From assembly GCA_951812755.1 (NCBI GenBank), contig OX638329.1:186001-250000 (forward strand): a DNA stretch of 64,000 bases. Direction: 5' to 3'. Made by a program: the position numbers and the translations under genes. Position 1 is the stretch's first letter. The number at the start of each line of letters is the position of its first letter. This document shows positions 11,512 through 64,000 of this stretch, piece by piece. The notes under the pieces were generated by a model, which worked only from the letters and a program-made list of their open reading frames with translations, made no database searches and was not told where the DNA came from. Origin of the DNA: an uncultured Latescibacterota bacterium (GTDB lineage: Bacteria; Latescibacterota; UBA2968).

Positions 11512-12588
11512 ATGTTTGGAAAGCACCTGCAACTCGCTCGCAAAAAGGCTGGTTATTCACTGCGCGGCCTCTCTTATGCGCTGGACAGCGAAGTGACCGC
11601 ACAGGCCATTGGAAAATATGAACGCGGCGAAATGATGCCACGCTCCAGTGTGCTGATTCATCTCGCCAGCACGCTCGGCGTTTCACTGGAATATCTACTC
11701 AGCGATCGCGTTGAGACCCTCAAATTACCCGAATTTCGCAAGCACTCGGGTATGAGTGCCGGTGATCGAGCACGCGTTGAGGCGGCGGTCATTGACGGTC
11801 TGCAACGCTACTTTGCCATTGAAGAGATACTCTCAGGTGATAGCGGAGTCTCGAAGGCTCCCCGATTGGGCAACCGATGGCTGGAACACGAGGATGACGG
11901 CGAAGTTCTGGCACAGGACTTGCGCCGAAAATGGCAAATAGGGATTGATCCCATTCCCAATATGACCGCTTTGCTGGAAGATCGAGGCATCAAAGTACTC
12001 ATGATGCCCCTGCCCGATCGCGTCTCGGGACTCACCTGTTTTGTGTACAGGCCGCGGCAAAAGACCAAAGTACCGGTTATTGTTGTGAACGCGCAGATCT
12101 CGCAGGAAAGGCGACGGTTTACCCTCGCCTATGAACTCGCGCACCAGCTAATCGATAAGACCTCGCCTGTCAATCGTGAAAAGGCGTCAGATATCTTCGC
12201 AGGAGCCTTCCTGATGCCTAAAGATCATCTCATGCGCACAATAGGCGAACGGAGAAAGGCCCTCTGTTATCGGGAATTGATCCAGATCAAACGCATATAC
12301 CGGGTGAGTGTAGCAACGCTTTTGGTCCGCCTCAAGCAGGTCGGCATCATCAATCAATCGACTTTCGACTATACGTTCCGGACTGTTGCACGTGGCTGGC
12401 GGAAGAGTGAACCGGAATCGCTGAAAGGAAATCACGAAGTGCCGCAGCGGTTTGAGAGGCTTTGTTATTGGGCACTTGCAGAGAAACTCATCGATCCAGG
12501 AAAAGCTTGCGAGTTGTTGCAAAAGCCATTGGCAGACATCGAAAAAGGGCTGAAAGGACCTGCCAGTGGCAATGCGGATAGTAGTTAG
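11512..12588 (+). CDS. XRE-type HTH plus ImmA/IrrE (COG2856) regulator/antitoxin with degenerate HExxH
   Basis: 358 residues. Residues 1-65 are an XRE helix-turn-helix (HLQLARKKAGYSLRGLSYAL, KYERGEMMP). Residues ~130-280 are an ImmA/IrrE-like metallopeptidase domain. The zinc motif reads YELAH (207-211) in place of HELAH, so the first histidine ligand is lost while FAGAFLMP is kept; the domain is probably not proteolytic. GAGGA lies 5 nt upstream. The gene overlaps the PIN-domain gene by 23 bp, the arrangement of a toxin-antitoxin pair in which this protein is the antitoxin. A decayed copy of its 3' end is found at 16915. Confidence 0.88.
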   Translation: MFGKHLQLARKKAGYSLRGLSYALDSEVTAQAIGKYERGEMMPRSSVLIHLASTLGVSLEYLLSDRVETLKLPEFRKHSGMSAGDRARVEAAVIDGLQRYFAIEEILSGDSGVSKAPRLGNRWLEHEDDGEVLAQDLRRKWQIGIDPIPNMTALLEDRGIKVLMMPLPDRVSGLTCFVYRPRQKTKVPVIVVNAQISQERRRFTLAYELAHQLIDKTSPVNREKASDIFAGAFLMPKDHLMRTIGERRKALCYRELIQIKRIYRVSVATLLVRLKQVGIINQSTFDYTFRTVARGWRKSEPESLKGNHEVPQRFERLCYWALAEKLIDPGKACELLQKPLADIEKGLKGPASGNADSS

Positions 12589-47599: not shown

Positions 47600-47716
47600 G
47601 AAGTGAGAAGTGTGAGGTGTGAAGTGTGAAGTGTGAAGTGTGAAGTGTGAAGTGTGAAGTGTGAAGTGTGAAGTGTGAAGTGTGAAGTGTGAAGTGTGAA
47701 GTGTGAAGTGTGAAGT
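47600..47716. repeat. 9-bp tandem repeat, about 13 copies
   Basis: The unit GAAGTGTGA is repeated without interruption from about 47618 to 47716; the first copies (47600-47617) are slightly degenerate. A two-copy version lies at about 59328-59343 after hsdM. No spacers, so it is not a CRISPR array. The unit is out of frame with any gene. Confidence 0.92.
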
Positions 47717-48010: not shown

Positions 48011-48994
48011 ATGAAAATCGAAAAACCACCATACATAATCACACCGGACATTCTCTTTCGCATTGAAGAAATCGGTGAAGCGATTGGTCGCGCGACAGGC
48101 ATCTCGCAGGACTTGCGCCTGCGGCGAATCAATCGCATCCTCACGATTCGCGGATCCCTCGCCATTGAAGGCAATATCCTCAGCGAAGAACAGGTCTCCA
48201 CAATACTCGACGGCAAGCCCGTTATCGCGCCACTCAGAGACATACAGGAAGCCCGCAACGCCATCAAAGCCTACGACCAATACCAGCAGTGGAATCCCGC
48301 CAGCGAAGCCGGCCTGTTGCGTGCTCACGAAATCCTGATGATCGGCCTATTGGATGCGCCCGGACAATATCGCCGCAGAGACATTGGCGTTATGGGCGGC
48401 GGCGAAGTCCATCACATCGGCCCACCTCCCATGCGCGTGCCACAACTCATGGCAAACTTGCTGGCCTGGCTGGGCAGCACCGATGAACACCCGCTAATCG
48501 CCAGTTCAGTTTTCCACTACGAATTTGAGTTCATTCACCCCTTTGAAGATGGCAACGGACGGATGGGACGGCTCTGGCAAACCCTGATACTGACCCGCTG
48601 GAAATCCCTGTTCGCCCACATCCCCGTAGAAAGTCTGGTCCATGCCCGACAAAGCGACTACTACAAAGCCATCAGACAGAGTTCATCAGAAGGCGAGAGC
48701 ACGCCATTCATTGCGTTCATGCTGGAGATTATTCTGGATGCCCTCCAGGTAACCGACCAAGTAACCGACCAAGTAACCGACCAGGTAGCGCGGCTACTCG
48801 CCGCCTTGCGGACAGGACCAAAAACCACCGCTGAACTCATGGCGGAACTGGGCCTATCACATCGTCCCACATTCCGCAACAACTACATTCGCCCGGCAAT
48901 CTCCGCAGGACTCGTGGAAATGACACGCCCCGAATCACCCACCGCGAGAAACCAAAAATATCGCCTCACCACACGCGGAAGAGAGATACAATAA
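48011..48994 (+). CDS. Fic-domain protein (AMPylase-like) with C-terminal winged helix
   Basis: 327 residues. Class II Fic layout: the inhibitory motif SLAIEGN (about 49-55, [S/T]xxxE[G/N]) and the active-site motif HPFEDGNGRMGR (about 177-188). After the Fic core comes VTDQ repeated three times (VTDQVTDQVTDQVARLL), then a winged helix (TTAELMAELGLSHRPTFRNN, KYRLTTRGREI). Fic enzymes transfer AMP from ATP to Ser/Thr/Tyr. The inhibitory motif and the catalytic His are intact. No ribosome site was seen before the ATG. It precedes the Avs-like gene by 41 bp. Confidence 0.93.
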   Translation: MKIEKPPYIITPDILFRIEEIGEAIGRATGISQDLRLRRINRILTIRGSLAIEGNILSEEQVSTILDGKPVIAPLRDIQEARNAIKAYDQYQQWNPASEAGLLRAHEILMIGLLDAPGQYRRRDIGVMGGGEVHHIGPPPMRVPQLMANLLAWLGSTDEHPLIASSVFHYEFEFIHPFEDGNGRMGRLWQTLILTRWKSLFAHIPVESLVHARQSDYYKAIRQSSSEGESTPFIAFMLEIILDALQVTDQVTDQVTDQVARLLAALRTGPKTTAELMAELGLSHRPTFRNNYIRPAISAGLVEMTRPESPTARNQKYRLTTRGREIQ

Positions 48995-49035: not shown

Positions 49036-52000
49036 ATGACCTTAAGTGAACAGCAACATCATAAAAAACTAAAGGAAGAGCTTCAGCAAGGCGGAAAAGC
49101 ATCGAATCTCGAACGTCTCGCGCCTACACTGCTGGAACGCCTACTTGATGTGCCATTTCCTGTCGCCAAATCCGGCGGCTATCAACATGGCGGAGATGCC
49201 GGAACAGCAGGGCATCAAGGACGAAGGCTTCGCGCTGAATGCAAGAAGTATAGTGACACCAGCCATCTGCGCGAACGGGAATTGCTTGGAGAGATAGACC
49301 AAGCTCTTGCACGAGATCAAGCACTTGAAGCCTGGATATTGGTTGCAACACGCCCCGTTCCAGAGACCCTACAGCATTCGCTTGTGCAGAAAGGCGAAAG
49401 TGTTGGGGTTCCCATTGTAATTATCGATTGGGCAAATCACGGGATAGCACCACTCGCAGCATTATGCGCTTTTGCCCCTGATTTGGTTGAGGAGGAGTTT
49501 TCAAAAGAGGCTGGTGAGGCAGCTCGTGCCCTTCAACCCATATCAAAGCAAGCTATCGAAAGGTTGCAACGCGATCTGCAATCCTGGTGTCTAGGGTATG
49601 ATGCTTTACGCACACTATCTCACAAGTGTCTCGACGAGATTTGGAACTCTCCCGAAGAGTCGAACGCTAAACTTGGACAAAACGCCGCTGGAGGTGCTCA
49701 GGAGAAGAAGGTCAAACGTAGTACCGTACATGAAGCACTGAATACATGGTGGGAGGGTCCAGCTCATAATGACGCACCAGTTGCCGTCGTAGGCCTGGAA
49801 GGCATCGGTAAAACGTGGGCAACGCTCGATTGGTTGATAGACAAAAGGGATGAACAACCAATGGTTCTGGTAATACCATCCTCTGCGGTAGTCGCTGGGC
49901 ACGTCTCTGAAACCAGTGTGAAGCAAATTCTGGCAGATCGCCTTCACGAAATGAGCAAAGGGATACGGGACAGGGACCATTGGCTTCGCCGTCTCGAAAA
50001 TTTACTGAAGCGTCCGACCAATGAGGGGCCTGTCCTGACAGTCTTCTTTGATGGCCTGATTCAAGAGTCATCCACTCCTTGGCTACACATTCTGAAGATT
50101 CTTCAAAGTAAAACATTTAAGGGACGAGTAAGGGTAATCGTCAGTACTCGAACTCATCATTTTGAAGAAACGTTGTCGGAGCTTCGCGGTCTTGTCAATT
50201 TAGCTGAGCGGGTTGATGTAGATCTCTATGATACAGCACCAGGAAGTGAACTTGACCAGATGCTTGCATTTGAGAATCTCACGCAGACCGACCTGCATGA
50301 CGATGTAATTGAATTGGCTCGTAAACCCCGTCTCTTTAAGCTCGTAGTACATTTCCGAGAAGAGTTGGTTGAGGCGGATCAAATAACAGTCCATCGTCTG
50401 CTGTGGGAGTACGGACGCGACTATTTCGGAGTTCGTGCTGGCAGATCATTCAGCCAAAACGAGTGGAGGTACTGGCTTACAGAAATTGCTCAAAAACATC
50501 GAACCGATATCGAATATAAATATTCACTGAGGTCGCTCGGTGAAACCGTAGCCCGTCCCGACCTTAGCAAAAATGAGGTCTATGCAAGGCTCAGCGACAT
50601 TATTGATGGACGGTTCGCTACCCGTGATTCATCAGGCAATTTCAAAATTATTCCCGCAGTCGTTGCACATGCCCTCGGTGCTGCACTTCTGAATGACCTA
50701 TATCAAGAAGCCTCGCCAAATTTAGAAAATCTAAATGCCAAGTTAGCGGAATGGTTTGATCCCATTTCTGGTCTTGATGAAAGAACTGAAATCCTGCGTG
50801 CGGCAGTATCAATCTTAGTGGAGCAGGGACGTGCAGCAGAGTCACTCATTCCTGGAGTGCTCGTCACGGCGTGGTTACAAAGTCAGAATGTTCCCGATGA
50901 ACACCGTCAAGAACTCGCCGATCTCGCTCCGAATTTTCCCGATGCACTGCTTGATACGATTGAGCATTCAGACAGTTACGTTTATGATTCTGCCAGATTT
51001 TGGGCTGTGAACGCGCTGCGAAATATTCCCAGGGAAGATACTGCTGCTTTTACCAAAATTATCCAGCGATCTCTGAGCTGGATGAGTATTGTATCCCGTG
51101 ATGTCGATACGCAACCAAATGCCAACGAAGAGCGCGACAAGCGACGCTCAGATCGACTGAAAAACTTGATTGGTATCGACTCCTCGCAACGTATTAAAGT
51201 CTGCGGTGTTGAACTTGATTTGGTTAATCATGACACCGGCTTTAGCGCACGGCAATCTGCTGTGCCTTCAATCATTGAAGTTTTTCCGCTGTCTAAAGCC
51301 CTGCCAATTTTTGAGGTAGCTGCAGTTGCCGTAGCAGTCAGAGGCCCAAACGCGAGTTGGGATGGATTAAAGTGGATTTGCCTGCTTAACGAAGATGATC
51401 CAGACGAAATGGTGAAGGCTTTGAGAGCCTTGTCCGAAGAAATCCGTCTCCGAACTCCAGAACCGGGCATACATCCGGATCTCCCGAAGAGCGTCGCTTC
51501 ACTTCTGCTCAGACTCACCGGACACAAGGCTGACGAAGATAAAGCAGTGGATATTGATCCTGATCTGAACCGCCTGTTCTCTTACGAGAAAGACTATCTA
51601 CAAAAGCCTAGCCAAAGCTGGTTTCCGCTGGAACGGCGCCATGCGGAAATTACTCTTGCTGATCGAGAATTGCCTTTGGTTAGTCGCGCACAACGGACCG
51701 AAGATCTATGGCTTGACCCCAGCTTTGAGCCTCCAGACACCTTTGTAGCCGAACTGCATAAGGCAGCAAAGAGCATAGATGTCGAAAAGCTGGACAGGTA
51801 TATGGAGGTCACCAGCGAGGATTACGACTTTGAGAGACTCGAACCAGCACTTGCTCGTTGTGCGCCAGATCTGCTGGCGGATTTGATTCGTAGGAAAATG
51901 CAGAATCTATCTACCTCTCCCCCAGAATTTCGACAGTCGAGGGTCATTCAGGCGACCAATCATCTTATTCTGGCAGACGAAACCGAAATAGAAGCGATGC

Positions 52001-53478
52001 GGAAGTTGCGTTTGATCAGCGAAAATGATAATGAGAATACTGATGCCCACGTCACTGAGAGACTTTTGTTGATGGAGTTTCAAAACCTGGAGGCACAGGC
52101 TCAATTCGATCTATTACTTCAATCAGACTTGGAAAATTTTTCGTGGGACTTCTGTAAAGTTTTGAGTCCCCCAACACGGGACGATATTGACACATTAATC
52201 ACCCGTTACGCCAACAGTTCGTCCTCTAAACAACGTGTTTTGCTTATCTTATTATCGCATTTACCAGTTGAACTCACGGACAACGCCTGGTCATGGGTTG
52301 AGCGTTTCCGGAAACACCAAGACGATGAACTTCGGGGATTTGCATTCCAGATTCTGACTTGTGCCAATCCAATGCGATTTGGTCGGACGCTTGAAGCTGA
52401 GGGTTGGTCTTGGAGTCCGAGTGAAAACATTTATGTAAATCATTGTGGCACGAGTGCTCTTATCAAAGCCACGTTAAATATTCCTTTCGAAGATCTTGTA
52501 CCACGATTGGCACCTTGGCAACTGCTAAAAGCTACTCGCCTGCGCGAAGCTATTCCCACGGAAGTTCAGTTGGCAGCTAAAAAACTCAATCCGCGATCCT
52601 TTAATAAAAACATCAGAATTTACTCAGAAGATTTCGAGCCAGTTCTGACGCATGCAATGGATACAGTGGAACAATGGCTTGCGGACTATTGCGAGATGAC
52701 GGAGGTTTCTCGTTACAATTCCTCAGCCGATAAATTCTTCTTGGCTCTTTGTCAGGCTCTGCTTACTCATGCACCTGAGAAAGGGACGCAGTTGTGGCAT
52801 AAGTTACGTTCGAACAGTATAACCATTGGTAAGGCAGGTGTGGAAGACCTCATCTACATGGTATTCAGAGTGCCACACTCACCAGAGGTAATGAAACTCC
52901 GAGAGGAGTTAGTTGAATTAGAATACTGTCATAACGATCAAAAACTTTTCGAACTCGCAATCGCTACGTCGTATCATGGGAAATCCGATTGGCTTGACAC
53001 TCTTATTTATAATGACCGAGTATCAACATCTGTCTGGCGACAGAGCCGCGCGGAAGTACTTGCGGGTTTTACCGTGAATAATTCACTACCTGTTGCTGGA
53101 GCCTGGCCGGATGGCGAGACCCGCACAACCCATGCGAAATTTACTCTGGTATCAGCACGCCATAGATGGATTGAAGCGTGCGCTCGCCACTGGTGGCGAA
53201 CTTTTCTCAATGCTTGCGATCCGGCTGAGGCTTACGCAGCCTGGGTACTGTTTTTGCACTCGGCTGATCGTCGCGCCTCGGTGTGGATCGGTCAAGACAT
53301 TGAAACCGCTGATCATTCGACAGATCTTTTTCAACGGAAGATAAACCATTTTCGACTTAACCGGTCGAACCTGGAGAGAGCCATGAAGAAACGTGAAGGA
53401 AATTTTGGTGACAAACTGGACCAGCATTTTTTGTGCCGCGAGACTGTGCGGAGTACAGGTCCCTGGTTCGGACGATGA
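49036..53478 (+). CDS. Avs-like STAND NTPase with N-terminal PD-(D/E)XK nuclease motif
   Basis: 1480 residues. Residues ~25-140 read as a restriction-like nuclease: GGYQHGGDAGTAG with Asp54, RRLRAECKKY with Glu68 and Lys70, then EAWILVATRP. The P-loop is GLEGIGKT (253-260), Walker B is VLTVFFDG (333-340, Asp339), a sensor is VIVSTRTHHF (about 369-378), and RKPRLFKLVV (about 430) is like the STAND GxP region. About 950 residues of helical repeats follow with no recognised domain. Nuclease + STAND + long C-terminal sensor is the architecture of Avs antiviral proteins, in which the C-terminus binds a phage protein and the nuclease then cuts DNA. Assignment to a numbered Avs type is not possible from sequence reading. 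No good ribosome site. Confidence 0.75.
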   Translation: MTLSEQQHHKKLKEELQQGGKASNLERLAPTLLERLLDVPFPVAKSGGYQHGGDAGTAGHQGRRLRAECKKYSDTSHLRERELLGEIDQALARDQALEAWILVATRPVPETLQHSLVQKGESVGVPIVIIDWANHGIAPLAALCAFAPDLVEEEFSKEAGEAARALQPISKQAIERLQRDLQSWCLGYDALRTLSHKCLDEIWNSPEESNAKLGQNAAGGAQEKKVKRSTVHEALNTWWEGPAHNDAPVAVVGLEGIGKTWATLDWLIDKRDEQPMVLVIPSSAVVAGHVSETSVKQILADRLHEMSKGIRDRDHWLRRLENLLKRPTNEGPVLTVFFDGLIQESSTPWLHILKILQSKTFKGRVRVIVSTRTHHFEETLSELRGLVNLAERVDVDLYDTAPGSELDQMLAFENLTQTDLHDDVIELARKPRLFKLVVHFREELVEADQITVHRLLWEYGRDYFGVRAGRSFSQNEWRYWLTEIAQKHRTDIEYKYSLRSLGETVARPDLSKNEVYARLSDIIDGRFATRDSSGNFKIIPAVVAHALGAALLNDLYQEASPNLENLNAKLAEWFDPISGLDERTEILRAAVSILVEQGRAAESLIPGVLVTAWLQSQNVPDEHRQELADLAPNFPDALLDTIEHSDSYVYDSARFWAVNALRNIPREDTAAFTKIIQRSLSWMSIVSRDVDTQPNANEERDKRRSDRLKNLIGIDSSQRIKVCGVELDLVNHDTGFSARQSAVPSIIEVFPLSKALPIFEVAAVAVAVRGPNASWDGLKWICLLNEDDPDEMVKALRALSEEIRLRTPEPGIHPDLPKSVASLLLRLTGHKADEDKAVDIDPDLNRLFSYEKDYLQKPSQSWFPLERRHAEITLADRELPLVSRAQRTEDLWLDPSFEPPDTFVAELHKAAKSIDVEKLDRYMEVTSEDYDFERLEPALARCAPDLLADLIRRKMQNLSTSPPEFRQSRVIQATNHLILADETEIEAMRKLRLISENDNENTDAHVTERLLLMEFQNLEAQAQFDLLLQSDLENFSWDFCKVLSPPTRDDIDTLITRYANSSSSKQRVLLILLSHLPVELTDNAWSWVERFRKHQDDELRGFAFQILTCANPMRFGRTLEAEGWSWSPSENIYVNHCGTSALIKATLNIPFEDLVPRLAPWQLLKATRLREAIPTEVQLAAKKLNPRSFNKNIRIYSEDFEPVLTHAMDTVEQWLADYCEMTEVSRYNSSADKFFLALCQALLTHAPEKGTQLWHKLRSNSITIGKAGVEDLIYMVFRVPHSPEVMKLREELVELEYCHNDQKLFELAIATSYHGKSDWLDTLIYNDRVSTSVWRQSRAEVLAGFTVNNSLPVAGAWPDGETRTTHAKFTLVSARHRWIEACARHWWRTFLNACDPAEAYAAWVLFLHSADRRASVWIGQDIETADHSTDLFQRKINHFRLNRSNLERAMKKREGNFGDKLDQHFLCRETVRSTGPWFGR

Positions 53479-53576: not shown

Positions 53577-55145
53577 TTGATTGACCATTCATTCGAAGAG
53601 ATTTCCACGAAAGAGCAAACAGCAGTGACTTCAAACTTTTCACTCCATGACCTGACCGCCCTCGGCGAAGGCTTTACCACAGAGTTCAAACGCTCTATGC
53701 CTTCCAACCTGGGCCGTGAAATCTGTGCCTTTGCGAACGCGACTGGTGGCGTCATTCTGATCGGCGTAACAGACGACGGCGAAATCGTTGGTATTGCGAA
53801 CCACAACAAGTTGAAGTCGCAGGTCCAGTCCATTGCGCGATCAGCGGATCCGCCGATAGCAGTGGAAATGGACTCCGTCGAAGGCGTACTCTGCATCACA
53901 ATACCAGAACAACATGGCAAGCCCTACTCCTTTGGCGGCAAGTATTACATCCGTGAAGGCGCGAGTTCTCAGCAGATGTCACGCGACGAAATCCGCGAAT
54001 TCTTTTTTAAGGAAGGACTCATTCGATTCGACAAGACGCCTTGCCAGGATTTCAAGATAGATAGGGACCTGACGCCAGAGGTATGGGCGCGGTTTGCAGC
54101 GCGGGCGCGTATTCCCGAAGGCATGGACCCAATCGTGGCATTGGAAAACCTGCACCTGCTCGAAGGTGGGATCATGACCCATGCCGGCGCGTGGCTATTA
54201 GCGAAAGACATCACACGCTACACATTGACAGCGGGTGTGACCTGCGCAGTTCTTCGCGGCACAACCAATACGCATATCATCGACCTCAAGAACTTCACGG
54301 GCGATATATGTTCCATCTACGACGACTGTATAGCCTACATGCAGGCGAAGCTGAACACAGCCCTGATTCCTCATGCTCACGGACGCGACGAACGGCTTGA
54401 GTTGCCGGAAGACGCACTTCGCGAAGCAATGGTCAACGCCATCGCGCATCGAGACTATCGATCCACCGCTAAAGTGCAGGTACACATATTCTATGATCGG
54501 CTGGAAATCGTCACACCGGGCGGGTTACCAGCGGGAATGCGGGAAGAAGATTTGGGAATCAGAAGCGTACCGAGGAATCCACTTTTGTTCGGAATGTTTC
54601 ACCGCATGGGAATGGTAGAGCAAATCGGCAGCGGCATCCGGCGCATTCGACAGGAATGCCGTGACTACGGAGTGGAAGAACCCGTAATTGAGGTCTCGGA
54701 TAACTGGGTAGTCACGACATTCAAGCGACAAGTTGAACATGGTGGGCAGATAACCCCACATGTCACCGAGCAAGTACCCTACAGATACCCGACAATTCCA
54801 GAGCAAGTCACCGCACAAGTCAAAATAGATAAATCTTTTAACGAAAAATCAAATGATAACAATGATTTACAAATAATAACAAAAAAACTAAAAGACCTGA
54901 CCGCACAAGTCACCGCACAAGTCACCGCACAAGTTGTCCTATATTGTAGAGAGCCACGAGCAACGAAAGAAATCATGGGTATTTTGGAGCTGAAACACTG
55001 GAAAACTTTCCGTTCCAACTACCTACAACCCCTCCTTGACGATGGCTGGCTGGAAATGACCGTTCCCGACAAGCCGACCAGCAGCAAACAGAAGTACCGA
55101 TTGACAGCCAAAGGGCGAAAACTCCTAACTGAACTGGCAGATTGA
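53577..55145 (+). CDS. AlbA_2 (Schlafen-like) plus HATPase_c_4 protein with winged helix
   Basis: 522 residues from a TTG at 53577; a GTG at 53625 is another possible start. Residues ~25-140 are the AlbA_2 domain: TTEFKRS and GGVILIGVTDDGEIVGIAN. Residues ~270-370 are the ATP-binding part (ALREAMVNAIAHRDYRSTAK, FYDRLEIVTPGG, QIGSGIRRI). The C-terminal part has VTEQ/VTAQ repeats (LTAQVTAQVTAQVV), then a winged helix (EIMGILELKHWKTFRSNYL, KYRLTAKGRKL). Such proteins are often called transcriptional regulators, but the Schlafen-like domain can cut RNA. It overlaps the start of the PLD gene (TGATG), so the two are translationally coupled. Confidence 0.88.
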   Translation: MIDHSFEEISTKEQTAVTSNFSLHDLTALGEGFTTEFKRSMPSNLGREICAFANATGGVILIGVTDDGEIVGIANHNKLKSQVQSIARSADPPIAVEMDSVEGVLCITIPEQHGKPYSFGGKYYIREGASSQQMSRDEIREFFFKEGLIRFDKTPCQDFKIDRDLTPEVWARFAARARIPEGMDPIVALENLHLLEGGIMTHAGAWLLAKDITRYTLTAGVTCAVLRGTTNTHIIDLKNFTGDICSIYDDCIAYMQAKLNTALIPHAHGRDERLELPEDALREAMVNAIAHRDYRSTAKVQVHIFYDRLEIVTPGGLPAGMREEDLGIRSVPRNPLLFGMFHRMGMVEQIGSGIRRIRQECRDYGVEEPVIEVSDNWVVTTFKRQVEHGGQITPHVTEQVPYRYPTIPEQVTAQVKIDKSFNEKSNDNNDLQIITKKLKDLTAQVTAQVTAQVVLYCREPRATKEIMGILELKHWKTFRSNYLQPLLDDGWLEMTVPDKPTSSKQKYRLTAKGRKLLTELAD

Positions 55146-57211
55146 TGCGTGTATCAACGGAGACACGAAACATGGATACCGAGCAAGGCATGATATTCGG
55201 CGACGCCAGCGAGAGCCAGATGTCATTTGGGATAGATGACAGAAGTGGCCTTCGTGTGGTCAGCGCGAAATTCAACTCAGAAAAGAAATTTGACTGGGAC
55301 GTATTCGATGGCTTCGACACCCTGCGGGTATTGACCTATTCAGTGAGCGTGGATGCCATCGTTAGAATGCTCGATAAATACGCTTTCACGACCTTCGAAT
55401 GCGTATTTGGCTATGAAGGCATTATCCGCGACATGAAAGACATTCTCGCATTTCAGAAAACAGTGACCGGCGATACTCGCGCCGCAATCATGGGGCTCAA
55501 AGACGAACGGCACATACAAATTCTCGAAAAAGTACATGCGGGACAAGCCCACTTCAGAGTCTTGAGAAAGTCCATAGCCCACGCAAAGCTCTACCTGCTA
55601 TCCAATTCGGATGGCCGAAAACGAGTAATCATCGGATCCGCCAACCTCTCGGAACGGGCATTTTCCGGCGACCAACCAGAGACACTGGTCATGTTCGACA
55701 ATGATGAGAACGCTTGGGAACACTACAACAATATGTTCAACACCATCCGAGACGCCGCATCAGACGAAATCGAGCTACCCGATGAGAAAATAACGCGAGC
55801 GGAAATAGAAATTCAGGAAACCCCGTCTATGAATAACGGACCGACCACACTCATAATTGAGCCACCTGCACCGGATGAAGTCGAAACCTCCATTCCGGTT
55901 CAGGTAGAACGCGTAGAAAAGGTCCGTGCCGCTCTTGGCCCTGCGCTATCATCAGTCCTGCCTCCCATACGCAATGGCAAACAACGCATCACCCAGAACA
56001 TCAAACGCCAGATCAATCGCGTGATCCTCGTCAAGTCTGCCGAGGAAGTCGATACGCGCAACTTCCATATCGACAGAACCACGCGCCAAGCCACCCTATC
56101 GGGCGAGATATTCCCGCTGGAATGGGATAGCGATTCGGTAAAAACAGATGCGCGTCTGCTCCTGGAATACTTCGAGAACTACGCCGCCTTTGAAGGAGAT
56201 GTAAAACGGCTACAACGGGATTACTTCACCTTGATGGCGTGGCTGTATTTCTCTCCCTTCATGTGCGACATGCGGTCACTTGCCATGGTGCAAGACAGCG
56301 ATGTGGTCCGCTTTCCATCCTTTGGCATCGTCTTTGGAAAATCCAACTGCGGCAAAACCAGCCTGATTGACACGCTCATGACATCCATGTTCAGTTATGT
56401 CAACACAGTGGATAAACGGAGTTTCACCACATCCCGACTTCGCGGATTGCAAGCGTCGTACAAACGCTTTCCAGTTGTGTTTGACGATATCGGGCAACGC
56501 GCCTTCAATCAGTATGGCAAGGACATGATCAAAGAGGAATTACAACCCCCAGTTTCTGAATATCCGTGCTTCATACTCGCAATGAATGCCGAACCCCAAT
56601 CATTTCCCGACGAAATCGTCAAGCGCAGCCTGATGATATACACCACAACTGCACTACCCTCTCACGAAGAGGAAACCCGACAGCGTTTGCAAGGCGATGT
56701 ACAGAAGATACGCAGCAGTCTGACGGGACATCTCTATAAACGATACTTATCTGAAATTATGGAACACATTGCCCCCGGACACCTCCCGGAAGATTGGCTG
56801 GCGATTTCATCTCAGGCTATAAGCGACATTATATCTGAAGGAACAGGCAAAACACCGCCAGAATGGTGTCGCAAAATAACCTGGCAAAACTATGCGGAAA
56901 AGCGATACGACAGAGTCAAAGCAGCCCTCGAAAGTCTATTGCGCCCGGCGTCCTATGTAAAAAAAGAAGGCGATGCATCCAAAGGATGGACAATTGACGG
57001 AGAAAAAGTCATCGTCTGGGAACCACGCGATGCCTTTGGCAGGCGTGCATTCAACTGGGAAGATGTTCCCTCTACACTAATTGACCAGGACGCCAGCCAC
57101 GGCGACACGACGATTTTAAATAAGACCAGCTTGCAGAAATTCATAGGCCATAATCTCTACCCGCCTGGCAAATTGAATAAAATAAAGAGTTTGTTCAATT
57201 ATCGTCCCTGA
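55145..57211 (+). CDS. PLD-like nuclease fused to a P-loop NTPase (uncharacterised defence candidate)
   Basis: 688 residues from ATG at 55145 (TGATG overlap with the upstream gene); an ATG at 55172 with GGAGA 8 nt upstream is an alternative. Residues ~50-200 are a PLD-like domain: HAKLYLLSNSDG (His146, Lys148) and IIGSANLSERAF, one HKD half-site, as in dimeric nucleases. Residues ~385-500 are an SF3/AAA-like ATPase: GKSNCGKT (398-405), VVFDDIGQR (444-452), AMNAEP (479-484) and Arg494. The C-terminal part (residues 500-688) ends WEPRDAFGRRAFNWEDVP and further. This combination was not recognised as a named system. hsdM starts 44 bp downstream. Confidence 0.78.
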   Translation: MRVSTETRNMDTEQGMIFGDASESQMSFGIDDRSGLRVVSAKFNSEKKFDWDVFDGFDTLRVLTYSVSVDAIVRMLDKYAFTTFECVFGYEGIIRDMKDILAFQKTVTGDTRAAIMGLKDERHIQILEKVHAGQAHFRVLRKSIAHAKLYLLSNSDGRKRVIIGSANLSERAFSGDQPETLVMFDNDENAWEHYNNMFNTIRDAASDEIELPDEKITRAEIEIQETPSMNNGPTTLIIEPPAPDEVETSIPVQVERVEKVRAALGPALSSVLPPIRNGKQRITQNIKRQINRVILVKSAEEVDTRNFHIDRTTRQATLSGEIFPLEWDSDSVKTDARLLLEYFENYAAFEGDVKRLQRDYFTLMAWLYFSPFMCDMRSLAMVQDSDVVRFPSFGIVFGKSNCGKTSLIDTLMTSMFSYVNTVDKRSFTTSRLRGLQASYKRFPVVFDDIGQRAFNQYGKDMIKEELQPPVSEYPCFILAMNAEPQSFPDEIVKRSLMIYTTTALPSHEEETRQRLQGDVQKIRSSLTGHLYKRYLSEIMEHIAPGHLPEDWLAISSQAISDIISEGTGKTPPEWCRKITWQNYAEKRYDRVKAALESLLRPASYVKKEGDASKGWTIDGEKVIVWEPRDAFGRRAFNWEDVPSTLIDQDASHGDTTILNKTSLQKFIGHNLYPPGKLNKIKSLFNYRP

Positions 57212-57255: not shown

Positions 57256-59322
57256 TTGCCACAACTCGAACACATTGAAGCCATTGAAAGGCGCCTGTGG
57301 GGAGCAGCCGATAACCTGCGGGCCAACTCCACTTATGCCAGCAACGAATACTTTCTCCCGGTCATGGGCCTGGTATTCCTGCGCTATGCGTATAGCCGCT
57401 ATCTATCCGTAAAGGACGATATTGAAGCCAACCTGCCCACCCGCGGCGGTAAAAAAAGAGCTCTTACCAAAGAAGACTTCTCCCAGAAAAACGCCATCTA
57501 CCTCCGACCCAACGCGCAGTTCGACCACCTCGTCGCCCTGCCCGACAGCGAAGACCGCATCAAAGCCGTCATCGAAGCAATGGACGACATTGAAGCCGAC
57601 TACGAAAGCCTGCGGGGTGCATTGCCCAAAAGCGAATACCAGGAACTGGACAACGACGTACTCGGCCAACTCCTCCGCACGCTCAACCCCGACGAACTAA
57701 AACAAGTCTCTGGCGATGTCTTCGGACGCATCTACGAATACTTTCTCACCCAATTCGCCGACGATAAAGCCCATGACGACGGCGAGTTCTTCACCCCCGT
57801 CTCACTCGTCTCCCTGATCGCCCATGTACTCGAACCCGACTGCGGCACAGTACTCGATCCCGCCTGCGGGTCTGGCGGCATGTTCGTGCAAAGTGCGCGT
57901 ACCGTCGAAGAACACGGACAGCATCCCACCGAACAACTCACCTTTCGCGGTATAGAAAAAAACGCCACCACCATCCGCCTCGCCAGAATGAACCTCGCGG
58001 TACATGGCCTTGAAGGCGACATCCGCCAGGCCATCACCTACTATGAGGACCCACACGAACTACTCGGCAAAGCCGACTACGTAATGGCCAATCCCCCCTT
58101 CAATGTCGATGAGATCGACGCGGACAAAATCAAAACCGATCCACGCCTCCCCTTCGGCCTGCCCGGCGTAAATAAAGAGAACAAAGTCAGCAGCGGCAAC
58201 TACGTCTGGATCAGCTACTTCTATAGCTACCTCAACGAAACGGGCCGCGCAGGCTTTGTCATGTCCTCCCAAGCATCAAGTGCTGGCAGCAGCGAGGCCG
58301 CAGTACGCCGAAAACTGGTAGAAACCGGCGACATAGAAGCCATGATCGCCATTCGCTCCAACTTTTTCTACACCCGCACCGTCCCCTGCGAGTTGTGGTT
58401 TCTCAACCGCGCCAAACCCGAAACACACCGCGACAAAGTACTCATGATCGACGCCCGCAACATCTATCGCCAGGTCACGCGCAAAATATACGACTTCAGC
58501 CCCGAGCAGCAGCAAAACATCCTCGCCATTGTCCATCTCTATCGCGGCGAAACCGAGCGATTCATCGACCTTATATCCAACTATCTCCAACGCATTTTGG
58601 AAGAAAGCCTTGCGTGCTTTGAGATCAAAAATGGCGAAACCATCCATCCCCTACCCGACTTCGTCAACGCGCTCACCCGGTTGCACGACCTGTTCGCACC
58701 ATCCCTGAAAACCCTGCCGAAAAACGGACAGCATGCCGAAACCCTCGCCGAGTACGACAAGACGCGAACAGCATTCCCCGAGGCCATTGAGCAATTCCGC
58801 ACCGCAATTACAGAAACCGCACAAAATACCAGTTCCGACCTGAACAAACAGGTAGCAGAATTCGCTCCCCTGATCGAAATTAGCCGCGACCTATCCGAAC
58901 GCACAGATAGCCTCTACAAACTCGCCATCCGCATAACAGATATCTGCGAGACCTCGATCAATAACAGAACCGACATCACCCGCGCCCGCAGAACCGCAGA
59001 CGAGGCACGAAAGATCGCAGTTGAGCAACTCAAACAGGTACACTACTTCTACCAGCAGGCGCGCTGGCTCACCGAGCGTTTCCCCGAAGCGAAACTATGC
59101 GACGTAGAAGGACTGGTCAAACTGGTAGATCGCGCCGAAATCGAAGCCAACGACTGGAGCCTGACCCCTGGCCGCTACGTTGGCGTCGCACCCGAAGAAG
59201 AAGACGAGAATTTCGACTTTGCCGAGACCCTGCGCGAGATCCACGAGGAACTGGACGAACTCAACATCGAGGCCGTATCATTGGCAGCGACAATCAAGCG
59301 GAATTTTGAAGCACTAATTTGA
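57256..59322 (+). CDS. hsdM: Type I restriction-modification DNA methyltransferase subunit HsdM
   Basis: 688 residues from a TTG at 57256 (AAGGA 8 nt upstream). N-terminal HsdM_N helices (EAIERRLWGAADNLRANSTY, FLRYAYSRY), then the N6-adenine methyltransferase: FFTPVSLVSLI, motif I DPACGSGGMF (201-210), and motif IV NPPF (279-282). Longer than most HsdM (about 500-530) because of a ~200-residue helical tail (from about 440). Codon use is C-ending and GC-rich compared with genes further right. The partner HsdS is 2.5 kb downstream; HsdR is not in the window. Confidence 0.95.
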   Translation: MPQLEHIEAIERRLWGAADNLRANSTYASNEYFLPVMGLVFLRYAYSRYLSVKDDIEANLPTRGGKKRALTKEDFSQKNAIYLRPNAQFDHLVALPDSEDRIKAVIEAMDDIEADYESLRGALPKSEYQELDNDVLGQLLRTLNPDELKQVSGDVFGRIYEYFLTQFADDKAHDDGEFFTPVSLVSLIAHVLEPDCGTVLDPACGSGGMFVQSARTVEEHGQHPTEQLTFRGIEKNATTIRLARMNLAVHGLEGDIRQAITYYEDPHELLGKADYVMANPPFNVDEIDADKIKTDPRLPFGLPGVNKENKVSSGNYVWISYFYSYLNETGRAGFVMSSQASSAGSSEAAVRRKLVETGDIEAMIAIRSNFFYTRTVPCELWFLNRAKPETHRDKVLMIDARNIYRQVTRKIYDFSPEQQQNILAIVHLYRGETERFIDLISNYLQRILEESLACFEIKNGETIHPLPDFVNALTRLHDLFAPSLKTLPKNGQHAETLAEYDKTRTAFPEAIEQFRTAITETAQNTSSDLNKQVAEFAPLIEISRDLSERTDSLYKLAIRITDICETSINNRTDITRARRTADEARKIAVEQLKQVHYFYQQARWLTERFPEAKLCDVEGLVKLVDRAEIEANDWSLTPGRYVGVAPEEEDENFDFAETLREIHEELDELNIEAVSLAATIKRNFEALI

Positions 59323-60678: not shown

Positions 60679-61746
60679 ATGTCAGGCAATGAATTTTTAA
60701 ATCCTGCTTTATTGGCTGCCTACGAAAACGCAGAAAGAATGAATCAAATGGTAAATCCTGCTTTATTGGCTGCCTACGAAAACGCAGAAAGAATGAATCA
60801 AATGGTAAATCCTGCTTTATTGGCTGCCTACGAAAATGCAGAAAGAATAAATCAAATGGTAAATCCCGCTTTATTGGCTGCCTACGAAAATGCAGAAAGA
60901 ATAAATCAAATGGTAAATTCTACTTTATTGGCTGCCTACCAAGATGTAGAAAGAACGAATCAAATGGTAAATTCTACTTTATTGGCTGCCTACCAAGATG
61001 TAGAAAGAACGAATCAAATGGTAAATTCTACTTTATTGGCTGCCTACGAAAATGCAGAAAGGGTAGAGAAAGCGTTAAAGCCCTTTTTATCTGCTATCCA
61101 CGAAACAGCAAGGATGAATGAAGTCGTAAATTCCGCTTTATTGGCTATCCAAGATTCCCCGGTGATACAGGCTATGCGGGAATTTTCAAACTTACCATTC
61201 AGTTCAGTCGTGAGAGATAGAGTATTTACTGAATTAGACTCGCTTAGAATAGACCAGTTTAATCTTTTAGAAATTCAAGCTATTGATCAAAGTATTCAGG
61301 TAGAAATACAGAAAGAACTTGCAGGAAATCGCGATTACAACAGGCTTTCAAAGAGAGCACAGTTATCACTTTCATCTACCTACCATAAGTATTTTCTTCC
61401 AATTATCCTTGGTTTGTTAACTAACATTATAGTGGAAATGGCTCAAGAAGTGCAAATAAGCTTGGAAAAAAAGGAAACTCCAGCAGAAATCAAATCTTAC
61501 GTAAGACAACCAATCCCTGGAATAAATAAGAATCTATTGAAAGGTTACCGTGTCGTAACTGGCTCAGATGTTCATCTCAGAAAAGGTCCAAGTATGAAAT
61601 CTGACATTATCACTACGCTGCCACAAGGAAAGCTTTTAGAGGTCGAGAATAAATCGAACCGCTCCTGGATATTTGTAAAAGTTAAAATTGAAGGAGAGAC
61701 ATTTGTTGGATGGGTATCGAGACGCTATACGACCTATTTTAAATAG
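60679..61746 (+). CDS. Tandem 18-residue-repeat protein with C-terminal SH3b domain
   Basis: 355 residues from ATG at 60679 (AAAGGA 7 nt upstream). Residues 8-133 are seven copies of an 18-residue helix (NPALLAAYENAERMNQMV and variants such as NSTLLAAYQDVERTNQMV); two weaker copies follow (134-166). The middle is helical with one hydrophobic segment (YFLPIILGLLTNIIVEMA), possibly a membrane helix. Residues ~290-355 are an SH3b domain (YRVVTGSDVHLRKGPSMKSD, then FVGWVSRRY). No enzyme motif. AT-rich compared with hsdM. It lies between the toxin and hsdS in the split type I locus; the function is unknown. Confidence 0.82.
   Translation: MSGNEFLNPALLAAYENAERMNQMVNPALLAAYENAERMNQMVNPALLAAYENAERINQMVNPALLAAYENAERINQMVNSTLLAAYQDVERTNQMVNSTLLAAYQDVERTNQMVNSTLLAAYENAERVEKALKPFLSAIHETARMNEVVNSALLAIQDSPVIQAMREFSNLPFSSVVRDRVFTELDSLRIDQFNLLEIQAIDQSIQVEIQKELAGNRDYNRLSKRAQLSLSSTYHKYFLPIILGLLTNIIVEMAQEVQISLEKKETPAEIKSYVRQPIPGINKNLLKGYRVVTGSDVHLRKGPSMKSDIITTLPQGKLLEVENKSNRSWIFVKVKIEGETFVGWVSRRYTTYFK
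60700..61077 (+). repeat. In-frame 54-bp tandem repeat, seven copies
   Basis: Seven 54-bp units, each one 18-residue repeat. Copies 1 and 2 are identical in their codons except at the borders, copies 3 and 4 nearly so, and copies 5 and 6 identical, so the array expanded in pairs and recently. Units differ mainly in CCT/TCT and GAAAAT/CAAGAT at fixed places. Confidence 0.92.
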
Positions 61747-61878
61747 AACGCAGCGAAAAATGAATATAGAAGAACCTTTCAGTTCAGTGAATCTGTGAAA
61801 TCGAAGCTGCCGGTTAGTTATCCGTGCAATAAAACCTAATCGGTGACGATTACGAGCGATTTTCAGGAGTTGGGAATA

Positions 61879-63009
61879 ATGAGTAAAGGAATAAAAAAAC
61901 CATTGAGTGAGTTTATCGACTTTGCATACGGTAAAAGTCTCCCTGCGCGGCAACGCAAAAAAGGCCGGTTTCCTGTGTATGGATCAGCAGGTGTTGTAGA
62001 TTTTCATGAAACGCCACTAATTAAAGGGCCGGGTGTTATCATTGGTAGAAAAGGCACTATTGGTGCTGTTCATTGGAGCCAAGAGGATTTCTTTCCAATT
62101 GATACCACCTTTTATGTTGTCCTTAAAGGGAGAATCAGGCTTCAATACGCCTATTACCTGTTGAAGACATTGCCGCTTCAAAAAATGAACACAGATGCTG
62201 CTGTTCCGGGGCTGAACCGCAACAATGCTTTGCGACTTATGGTATCTATCCCATCTTTCAGCCAACAAGACCACATTGCCTCTATCGTCTCCACCTACGA
62301 CGACCTGATCGAAAACAACCAGCGGCGGATTCAATTGCTGGAACAATCGGCCCAGCTACTCTACAAAGAGTGGTTCGTCCACCTTCGCTTCCCCGGACAT
62401 GAACACGTCACCATTACAGACGGCGTGCCGGAGGGGTGGAAAAAGAAAAATGTCCTTGATGTAATGGATGTCCTGAGCGGGGGAACACCTAAGACGAGTG
62501 TGCCCGATTATTGGAATGGTGAGATTCCGTTCTTCACGTCAAAGGACACTACGGATTACGCATACATTTTTAGTACAGAACGAACGCTTACAGAAGAAGG
62601 ACTGCGTAATTGTAGCAGTAGGCTATATCCAAAAGATACCGTTTTCATCACCGCACGAGGAACAGTCGGCAAAATTAACCTTGCTCAAACTGATATGGCG
62701 ATGAATCAGTCCTGTTATGCTCTGGTAGCCAAGCCACCTCTGAATCAGCAATTTCTCTACTTCGCCATGGTAGAAAACGTTGAACAATTTCGCAGTCGAG
62801 CAGTTGGCGCGATCTTCGATGCGATTATTCGCAATACCTTCAAGCTCATTCCTTTTGTGGTTCCCGAAACCAAATTGATCGACATGTTTACAGATATTAT
62901 ATCGCCGACCCTTCGACAAATTGACGTTCTTTCTACCGAAATCCGCAAACTCACCCAAGCTCGTGATCTGCTCCTTCCGCGATTGATGAATGGGGAGATT
63001 TCAGTATGA
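61879..63009 (+). CDS. hsdS: Type I restriction-modification specificity subunit HsdS
   Basis: 376 residues from ATG at 61879 (AGGAG 9 nt upstream). Two target recognition domains (YGSAGVVDFHETPLIKGPGV, IIGRKGTIG; then LSGGTPKTSVPDYWNGEIPF, FITARGTVGKI), each followed by a conserved helix (IASIVSTYDDLIENNQRRI; IDVLSTEIRKLTQARDLLL). Standard two-TRD layout. It directs HsdM to the target DNA. The stop overlaps the next gene's ATG (ATGA). It is separated from hsdM by the toxin and repeat-protein genes. Confidence 0.94.
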   Translation: MSKGIKKPLSEFIDFAYGKSLPARQRKKGRFPVYGSAGVVDFHETPLIKGPGVIIGRKGTIGAVHWSQEDFFPIDTTFYVVLKGRIRLQYAYYLLKTLPLQKMNTDAAVPGLNRNNALRLMVSIPSFSQQDHIASIVSTYDDLIENNQRRIQLLEQSAQLLYKEWFVHLRFPGHEHVTITDGVPEGWKKKNVLDVMDVLSGGTPKTSVPDYWNGEIPFFTSKDTTDYAYIFSTERTLTEEGLRNCSSRLYPKDTVFITARGTVGKINLAQTDMAMNQSCYALVAKPPLNQQFLYFAMVENVEQFRSRAVGAIFDAIIRNTFKLIPFVVPETKLIDMFTDIISPTLRQIDVLSTEIRKLTQARDLLLPRLMNGEISV

Positions 63010-64000
63010 ACCAATCTGAACTTCGTCAGGAACTCGACCGTCTGTGTGAACTTCCGCATGAGACTGAATGGCTCGAGTTCAAAGAAGCTCAAAACCAGTA
63101 TGACTTCGATAAGTTAGGCAAGTATTTCTCTGCCCTATCCAACGAAGCCAACTTGAAAAAGCAAGCGTGTGGCTGGTTGATATTGGGCGTAAAAGATGAT
63201 CGTTCGGTTTGCGGCAGTCAGTGGTTCCACGAAAATCCAGCCAAACTTGACAAGTTGAAAGAGGGAATTTCCAATCATACAACCGGCAACCTCACATTTG
63301 ATGAGATTTATGTGCTCAATCACCCAGGTGGCCGCGTTGTCATGTTCAAAATTCCGCCCGCCTTACAAGGCATTCCAACTGCCTGGAAAGGACATTGGTA
63401 TGGACGCAATGGCGAATCCCTCGGCGCACTCAGTTTGCGAGAAATAGAGACGATTCGATTGCAGTCTTCTGACAAGCCTCAAACCAATTCAGACTGGAAT
63501 CAGCACGAATACGCTTCTGGACTGGCGATTGCCAACCTTCTTGGCGCGTGGAATGATCTAAACGAAGCCGATCTACAAATTGTGTGTCAATTTACCAATG
63601 GTGAGGATTACACAAAGTGGATTTCCAAACTGAGAGAGACGTTACAACAAGCCATAAGCCCTGTAACATTTATGAATGGAAGATGGCAGGTCATTGATCG
63701 AAAAGAAATGTGGCAAGCATTAGGCGGACGTATTTTTGATGACACGCTGGACGCCCTGAGACAGTGCACGGTCACTGTATTATCCGAGAAAGGACTAATA
63801 AAACACTCAAACGGTCTTCAAAAAGGTCTGGCTGAAACGCTGGCACTTCTCAGCACTAATCCTGGTGCTCTGACGAATTTTTCACCACAACATCAGGGTT
63901 GGAAACCAAAAGATACTGCTGTTCTTGCTGTTCGCGAAATTCTCAAGAATTCGGATTGGGTATTGAGGATTGGCCTCTATGATCTTCTCCCTACACTGGC
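63006..64000 (+). CDS. AlbA_2 domain protein of the type I locus (partial, runs off the window)
   Basis: At least 331 residues; ATG overlaps the hsdS stop by 4 bp. HETEWLEFKEAQNQYDFDKL and ACGWLILGVKDDRSVCG are the AlbA_2 signature (EFK and G..ILGV.D). After it comes WYGRNGESLGALSLREIETI and a long uncharacterised part. The translation is open to the right edge (LYDLLPTLA). AlbA_2 proteins are common between hsdS and hsdR and may regulate or accompany restriction. The ATPase part of the other AlbA_2 protein in this window has not appeared by the window end. Confidence 0.85.
   Translation, partial: MNQSELRQELDRLCELPHETEWLEFKEAQNQYDFDKLGKYFSALSNEANLKKQACGWLILGVKDDRSVCGSQWFHENPAKLDKLKEGISNHTTGNLTFDEIYVLNHPGGRVVMFKIPPALQGIPTAWKGHWYGRNGESLGALSLREIETIRLQSSDKPQTNSDWNQHEYASGLAIANLLGAWNDLNEADLQIVCQFTNGEDYTKWISKLRETLQQAISPVTFMNGRWQVIDRKEMWQALGGRIFDDTLDALRQCTVTVLSEKGLIKHSNGLQKGLAETLALLSTNPGALTNFSPQHQGWKPKDTAVLAVREILKNSDWVLRIGLYDLLPTL

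What the first reader, a model, noticed from the sequence alone, without database searches (positions are those of the whole stretch)
53577..57211. AlbA_2/ATPase + PLD/P-loop pair as a possible undescribed defence module
A Schlafen-like AlbA_2 protein with an ATP-binding domain is translationally coupled (TGATG) to a protein that joins a PLD nuclease half-site to an SF3/AAA-like NTPase. The pair lies between an Avs-like gene and hsdM. AlbA_2 proteins and PLD nucleases are known separately in defence loci; this two-gene unit is not one I can name. Nucleotide sensing by two ATPase domains with a DNA or RNA nuclease effector is a reasonable guess.
Basis: partly seen in the sequence, partly recalled or inferred. 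Interest (0 to 1): 0.75.

Follow-up and report, generated by a model that had tools for sequence, protein, structure and literature searches.

The report
Lone roaming PLD-nuclease/ring-ATPase gene
The two genes are really there, but they are not a matched pair: one is a known kind of defence accessory protein, and the other belongs to an unnamed family that joins a DNA-cutting domain to a ring-type ATP motor and travels between bacterial phyla as a single gene, probably to attack invading DNA.

Summary
Both genes are present and overlap by TGATG. P0001 is Schlafen AlbA_2 + HATPase_c_4 + Fic-like winged helix. P0002 is an NgoFVII/NgoAVII-type PLD half-site plus an AAA+/SF3-like ATPase.

The two-gene-module reading fails. 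At this site in the host genus (Ca. Latescibacterota), AlbA_2 abuts P0002 in 5 of 8 genomes, is absent in 2 and is separated by a transporter gene in 1. In G034 its AlbA_2 domain is lost while P0002 stays intact. The nearest P0001 relatives in seven genomes outside the genus have no P0002 nearby. Among 73 P0002 loci outside the genus, one (a Ruminococcaceae MAG) has an adjacent P0001-type gene.

P0002 is a stand-alone two-domain family of Chloroflexota, Latescibacterota, Pseudomonadota, Clostridia and plasmids. Catalytic PLD and Walker residues are invariant in 49 members; dN/dS is 0.06-0.16 in twelve close pairs. Some copies 87-94% identical in DNA share the gene and short flanks but not their neighbourhoods, so it spreads as a single gene.

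Best reading: an ATP-driven PLD nuclease working alone against foreign DNA, like SauUSI or NgoAVII but with a ring AAA+/SF3-like motor. No Pfam, NCBIfam or PADLOC model names it. Function is inferred. A selfish single-gene element is not excluded (about 0.1).

The parts
55145..57211 (+). PLD-NTPase (P0002, 688 aa): N-terminal PLD half-site nuclease (about aa 36-210), linker, helical region (about aa 329-382), AAA+/SF3-like P-loop domain (about aa 388-505), C-terminal helices and beta-hairpin with winged-helix-like order (inferred)
53577..55145 (+). AlbA_2 (Schlafen) + HATPase_c_4 + Fic-like_C winged helix protein (P0001); GTG at 53625 is a plausible start; separate cargo gene, coupled to P0002 in some genomes only
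55143..55147 (+). TGATG stop/start overlap of the two genes
55580..55645 (+). HxK ... GSxN active-site motif of the PLD half-site (H146, K148, G164-N167), invariant in 49 homologues
56336..56356 (+). Walker A region of the NTPase (G398..G403-K404), invariant in 49 homologues
54900..54934 (+). 12-bp tandem repeat (TAQV) in the linker before the C-terminal winged helix of P0001; a similar 12-bp repeat (VTDQ) lies in the Fic gene at 48745-48787
48011..48994 (+). Fic protein with the same Fic-like_C domain; cargo gene of the same island
49036..53478 (+).
57256..59322 (+). hsdM (N6_Mtase + HsdM_N) of a type I R-M system
61843..63009 (+). hsdS (Methylase_S); hsdR lies beyond the window in L037

Best explanation
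P0002 is a complete one-gene system: two protomers join their PLD half-sites into one metal-independent active site, as in NgoAVII and SauUSI, while the C-terminal AAA+/SF3-like domains form a ring that binds and moves along DNA using ATP. Recognition of invading DNA by the winged-helix-like end or the ring triggers cutting or shredding. P0001 is a Schlafen-type RNase/regulator, an auxiliary effector of a known kind, whose translational coupling to P0002 is recent and local. Shown: domain content, invariant catalytic residues, purifying selection in the pairs tested, stand-alone occurrence, and near-identical copies without shared neighbours. Inferred: DNA as substrate, dimer/ring assembly, translocation, anti-invader role.
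For: Two-domain homologues in 80 loci and relatives on plasmids of five genera. H146/K148/GSxN/E179 and Walker A/B/N481/R494 invariant in 49 sequences; all 49 hit RE_NgoFVII and PLDc_2, 34 hit PF00910 at E<=0.01. Top PDB folds of the whole model include SCCmec Cch helicase, NgoAVII R-protein, SauUSI and JCV/SV40 helicases. NTPase model pLDDT 94, pTM 0.89, best hit Cch. dN/dS 0.06-0.16 in twelve pairs. No recurrent partner in 138 immediate neighbours. A minority of neighbourhoods hold restriction genes: GmrSD, MmeI, ResIII, type I Hsd. Window copy nested among Chloroflexota, Latescibacterota copies scattered on the tree. SauUSI shows the PLD + motor logic biochemically (PMC7913695).
Against: No phage or restriction assay exists. 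Most neighbourhoods are not defence islands (only 1 of 73 non-genus loci has type I Hsd homologues nearby), so the anti-invader role rests on domain logic. PDB TM-scores are low (about 0.33 for the NTPase domain), so SF3 versus another AAA+ class is not settled. No target-recognition domain was identified. No random-gene control was run for defence enrichment.
Confidence: 0.55

Rival explanations
1. One reading: P0001 and P0002 form a dedicated two-gene defence module, with the AlbA_2 protein as sensor/regulator and the PLD-NTPase as effector.
For: TGATG overlap; direct abutment in 5 of 8 genus genomes; one independent adjacency, 64 bp apart, in a Ruminococcaceae MAG with the same domain set (L118).
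Against: AlbA_2 absent in G031 and G035, separated in G029, its AlbA_2 domain lost in G034 with P0002 intact. The nearest P0001 relatives in seven genomes outside the genus lack P0002 nearby. 1 of 73 non-genus PLD-NTPase loci has a P0001-type neighbour.
Confidence: 0.12
2. P0002 is the mobility enzyme of a selfish single-gene element: the PLD nuclease nicks and rejoins DNA through a covalent phosphohistidine and the ring ATPase unwinds, as HUH-SF3 Rep proteins do for small replicons.
For: Copies 92-94% identical in DNA share only the gene with about 20-200 bp upstream and 0-115 bp downstream; two bins hold several copies (G064 five full, G185 three). 87-93% identical genes without shared flanks occur between bins. 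Best fold hit of the NTPase is the Cch helicase of SCCmec.
Against: No terminal repeats seen, ends vary by tens of bases, no shared upstream motif. The one insertion with a comparable site (G033 v G000) carries a RelE-like ORF too, and its 20-bp junction repeat is imperfect. SAR202 bin90 contig titles give coverages of 5-16, so its copies may come from a mixed bin. dN/dS 0.06-0.16 fits retained host function, though it does not exclude this.
Confidence: 0.1
3. P0002 is a modification-dependent (type IV-like) or methylation-checking restriction enzyme that cooperates with the neighbouring type I methylase.
For: hsdM directly follows in G000, G031 and G032; SauUSI is modification-dependent (PMC7913695).
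Against: hsdM is not next to P0002 in G029, G030, G033, G034 and G035; HsdM homologues occur near only 1 of 73 non-genus loci.
Confidence: 0.15

Closest known systems
SauUSI (type IV, PLD + SF2 helicase-like ATPase)
   Same: N-terminal PLD half-site fused to an ATP motor in one gene, acting alone as a barrier to foreign DNA; appears in the fold search of P0002 (7clg)
   Different: Motor is SF2 with a C-terminal target-recognition domain; P0002 has an AAA+/SF3-like domain and no recognised TRD; no full-length homology detected
NgoAVII / CglI R-protein
   Same: PLD nuclease domain of the RE_NgoFVII kind, dimer, cleavage dependent on ATP hydrolysis by a partner (4rct)
   Different: ATPase is a separate DEAD-family protein and a methylase completes the system; P0002 carries its own different ATPase and has no fixed methylase
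Type-1 BREX BrxL with C-terminal HKD nuclease; Type-2 BR HKD-Swi2/Snf2 helicase
   Same: HKD/PLD nuclease fused to an ATPase (PMC12839542)
   Different: Parts of multigene systems; P0002 has PLD N-terminal to an AAA+/SF3-like domain and stands alone
SCCmec Cch and virus/phage SF3 helicases (D5/E5, large T antigen)
   Same: Best fold matches of the NTPase domain and among the best of the whole model
   Different: No PLD nuclease in these matches; low TM-score (about 0.33)
Schlafen RNase + minimal histidine kinase + wHTH auxiliary effectors (for P0001)
   Same: Same domain order as P0001; reported in at least 1017 taxa linked to BREX/BR loci (PMC12839542)
   Different: Here it lies in a type I R-M island; RNase activity of P0001 not tested

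Membership tests
PLD (RE_NgoFVII / PLDc_2) nuclease superfamily | HxK...GSxN half-site motif | tested here: met
   H146, K148, G164-N167 invariant in 49; Pfam hits in all 49
PLD (RE_NgoFVII / PLDc_2) nuclease superfamily | Dimer of half-sites, metal-independent cleavage | not testable with these tools
   needs purified protein
SF3 helicase / AAA+ ATPase | Walker A, Walker B with acidic pair, sensor-1/motif C Asn, arginine finger | tested here: met
   G398/G403/K404, D447/D448, N481, R494 invariant; assignment of R494 as finger is inferred
SF3 helicase / AAA+ ATPase | Confident sequence or fold match specifically to SF3 | tested here: inconclusive
   PF00910 in 34 of 49 at E<=0.01, below cut-off in P0002; top fold Cch, TM about 0.33
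SauUSI-type restriction enzyme | SF2 helicase motor and C-terminal TRD | tested here: not met
   motor domain matches AAA+/SF3 folds; no SF2 Pfam hit in P0002
NgoAVII/CglI R-M system | Fixed methylase and separate DEAD ATPase partners | tested here: not met
   no recurrent partner among 138 neighbours
Any PADLOC / NCBIfam system model (P0002) | Model match over most of the protein above cut-off | tested here: not met
   only short PLD- or P-loop-region hits
Two-gene AlbA_2 + PLD module | Genes conserved as a pair without the flanking genes | tested here: not met
   5 of 8 in genus, 1 of 73 outside
Schlafen + HATPase + wHTH auxiliary effector (P0001) | AlbA_2, HATPase_c, winged helix in that order | tested here: met
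   Pfam hits above cut-offs
Schlafen + HATPase + wHTH auxiliary effector (P0001) | tRNA/RNA cleavage on phage signal | not testable with these tools
   needs an assay
Transposable element | Defined ends, target-site duplication, clean empty site | tested here: inconclusive
   variable ends, no terminal repeat; one imperfect 20-bp junction repeat

The most novel reading that the evidence does not exclude
The PLD-AAA+/SF3 protein mobilises its own gene: a one-gene mobile element of a new type in which a covalent PLD nuclease fused to a ring helicase does the job that HUH-SF3 Rep proteins do elsewhere.
Probability: 0.1. Interest if true: 0.88.

Novelty: new variant of a known kind. Interest (0 to 1): 0.45.

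Why it matters
A conserved nuclease-motor fusion with no named model in Pfam, NCBIfam or PADLOC, present in at least seven phyla by record titles and frequent in sponge and marine bacteria, is easy to miss because it usually sits alone outside defence islands. If it restricts DNA, it adds a ring-type AAA+/SF3-like motor to the PLD restriction enzymes so far known with SF2 or partner ATPases. If it moves itself, it would be a new kind of mobile element. The genus comparison also shows that a four-base gene overlap in a defence island need not mean a functional pair.

Tried and rejected
Viral contigs: no hit with P0002, one motif-level hit with A1; phage records: no hit. A1 was too diverse for the genome scan, so A3 was used. 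An upstream shared-motif search found none; the TGTCAG...CTGACA palindrome occurs only in two G185 copies. A transposon with terminal repeats or a clean target duplication was considered: G033 v G000 gave a 2.45-kb insertion that also holds a RelE-like ORF and an imperfect 20-bp junction repeat. Recurrent partner: the 252-aa gene upstream in L095/L110/L113 is at a shared locus and, in L095, a Cu-oxidase_4 protein, so not an independent partner. PADLOC ZacB and PLD_Helicase hits to P0002 cover only the PLD motif region. Nine literature searches found no paper naming a PLD-SF3 fusion; the library lacks most subscription journals.

Full report
WHAT IS THERE. P0001 has SLFN_AlbA_2, HATPase_c_4 and a Fic-like_C winged helix; P0002 has an RE_NgoFVII/PLDc_2 half-site followed by a P-loop domain that hits PF00910 just below its cut-off. 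The window belongs to a 6.53-Mb single-contig genome of Candidatus Latescibacterota (named by the titles of its closest loci).

THE ISLAND. Downstream come hsdM, a zeta-like kinase, an SH3 repeat protein, hsdS, a second AlbA_2 protein, HipA_C, HIRAN and hsdR. Upstream are Fic and a 1480-aa P-loop protein. Across the genus the same chromosomal site, next to the same metabolic genes, holds different combinations. Fic is present or absent; the 1480-aa gene is replaced by a SIR2-TPR gene in G033 and G036; hsdM follows P0002 directly in G000, G031 and G032; and a sodium:alanine symporter gene lies before P0002 in G029 and G035 and after it in G033 and G034.

THE PAIR IS NOT A UNIT. Of eight genus genomes with P0002 at the site, AlbA_2 abuts it in five (G000, G030, G032, G033, G034), is absent in two (G031, G035) and is separated by the symporter in one (G029). 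In G034 the protein has lost its first 139 residues, including the AlbA_2 domain, and has a different C-terminus, while P0002 is intact. The nearest P0001 relatives outside the genus (in G013, G021, G022, G023, G046, G049, G050) have no P0002 nearby; two of these loci carry HipA/HIRAN homologues, one with HsdR. With the AlbA2 profile, only L118 among 73 non-genus P0002 loci has a P0001-type neighbour; flanks reach 8 kb but are shorter on small contigs. A second SLFN_AlbA_2 hit among the neighbours is a different, weakly similar protein.

P0001 IS A KNOWN KIND. [quoted passage not shown] P0001 has that architecture. Its RNase activity is not shown here.

P0002 IS A STAND-ALONE FAMILY. A genome scan with A3 returned 80 loci encoding the two-domain protein, mostly Chloroflexota, with Latescibacterota, Gemmatimonadota, Pseudomonadota, Acidobacteriota, Myxococcota, Actinomycetota and Bacillota by record title; a few copies are split or cut by contig ends. 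Plasmids of five genera carry relatives, the two Thermus ones interrupted or partial. In 49 aligned members the PLD residues H146, K148, G164-N167, E179 and the NTPase residues G398, G403, K404, D447, D448, N481, R494 are invariant, and all 49 hit RE_NgoFVII and PLDc_2. Immediate neighbours (138 proteins) show no recurrent partner. PADLOC and NCBIfam give only short motif-level hits to P0002. In the order of the SAR202 genome G064, 38 of 197 genomes have a match, mostly one copy.

STRUCTURE. The full model has mean pLDDT 84 and pTM 0.62; its best PDB folds include the SCCmec Cch helicase, the NgoAVII R-protein, SauUSI and polyomavirus helicases. The NTPase domain alone reaches pLDDT 94 and pTM 0.89, with Cch first, but TM-scores are about 0.33. 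I call it AAA+/SF3-like and leave the exact class open. The order of C-terminal helices and a beta-hairpin resembles a winged helix; this is inference.

MOVEMENT. The window copy nests among Chloroflexota (98/99 support) and Latescibacterota copies fall in separate places. Gene pairs 87-93% identical in DNA without shared flanks occur, for example L045/L046, L061/L067 and the L085/L091/L097 trio from bins titled Bryobacterales and Deltaproteobacteria; other close pairs do share flanks. In SAR202 bin90, four copies share the gene, roughly 50-100 bp upstream and 0-115 bp downstream; in G185 three copies share the gene up to the stop codon. Bin90 contig titles give coverages from 5 to 16, so these may be strains mixed in one bin. 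dN/dS between such copies is 0.06-0.16, with both halves constrained, so the copies tested were kept functional.

SELF-MOBILE? No terminal repeats or shared upstream motif were seen and the ends vary. Against G000, the second G033 copy lies in a 2.45-kb insertion that also holds a RelE-like ORF, with an imperfect 20-bp repeat at its ends. I therefore favour gene-level transfer over a true transposon, without excluding the latter.

FUNCTION. The best-supported mechanism is an ATP-driven PLD nuclease acting on foreign DNA. SauUSI shows that a PLD half-site joined to a motor can translocate and shred DNA (PMC7913695), and NgoAVII/CglI that PLD cleavage can depend on ATP hydrolysis (PMC4267653). 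For P0002 the substrate, assembly and anti-invader role are inferred. Defence-island association is modest and was not measured against a control.

VERDICT. Observation confirmed. Two-gene interpretation not upheld. A new variant of a known kind, with a less likely but more interesting mobile-element reading left open.

Noticed in passing
48745-48787 and 54900-54934: Similar 12-bp tandem repeats (VTDQ and TAQV) lie in the linkers of the Fic and AlbA_2 genes, both before a Fic-like_C winged helix. In G030 a TDQV-repeat stretch precedes the AlbA_2 start although Fic is gone, and in G034 the AlbA_2 protein has an SRPE repeat and another C-terminus; the repeats may be sites of domain exchange.
   Followed up: partly
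L029 (G029), L031 (G035), L035 (G036), L039 (G033): Short relics of a PLD-NTPase gene: about 40-codon fragments (codons 60-100) near the start of the sodium:alanine symporter gene in G029, G035 and G036, and a 31-bp match just downstream of P0002 in G033.
   Followed up: partly
60698-61061: 54-bp tandem repeat, 6.7 copies, coding the repeated segment of the SH3_3 protein inside the type I R-M region.
   Followed up: no
47600-47716: 7-bp tandem repeat, 16.7 copies (GAAGTGT), just upstream of the Fic gene at the island's edge.
   Followed up: no
L030 (G038), about 12288-12384: A high-copy dispersed repeat of about 60-80 bp in G038, hit many times by the flank query; related 25-45 bp matches occur in other genus members.
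   Followed up: no
63007-64000 into L036:16007-19213: Second AlbA_2 protein (1068 aa) directly after hsdS, with SLFN_AlbA_2 at its N-terminus only.
   Followed up: partly
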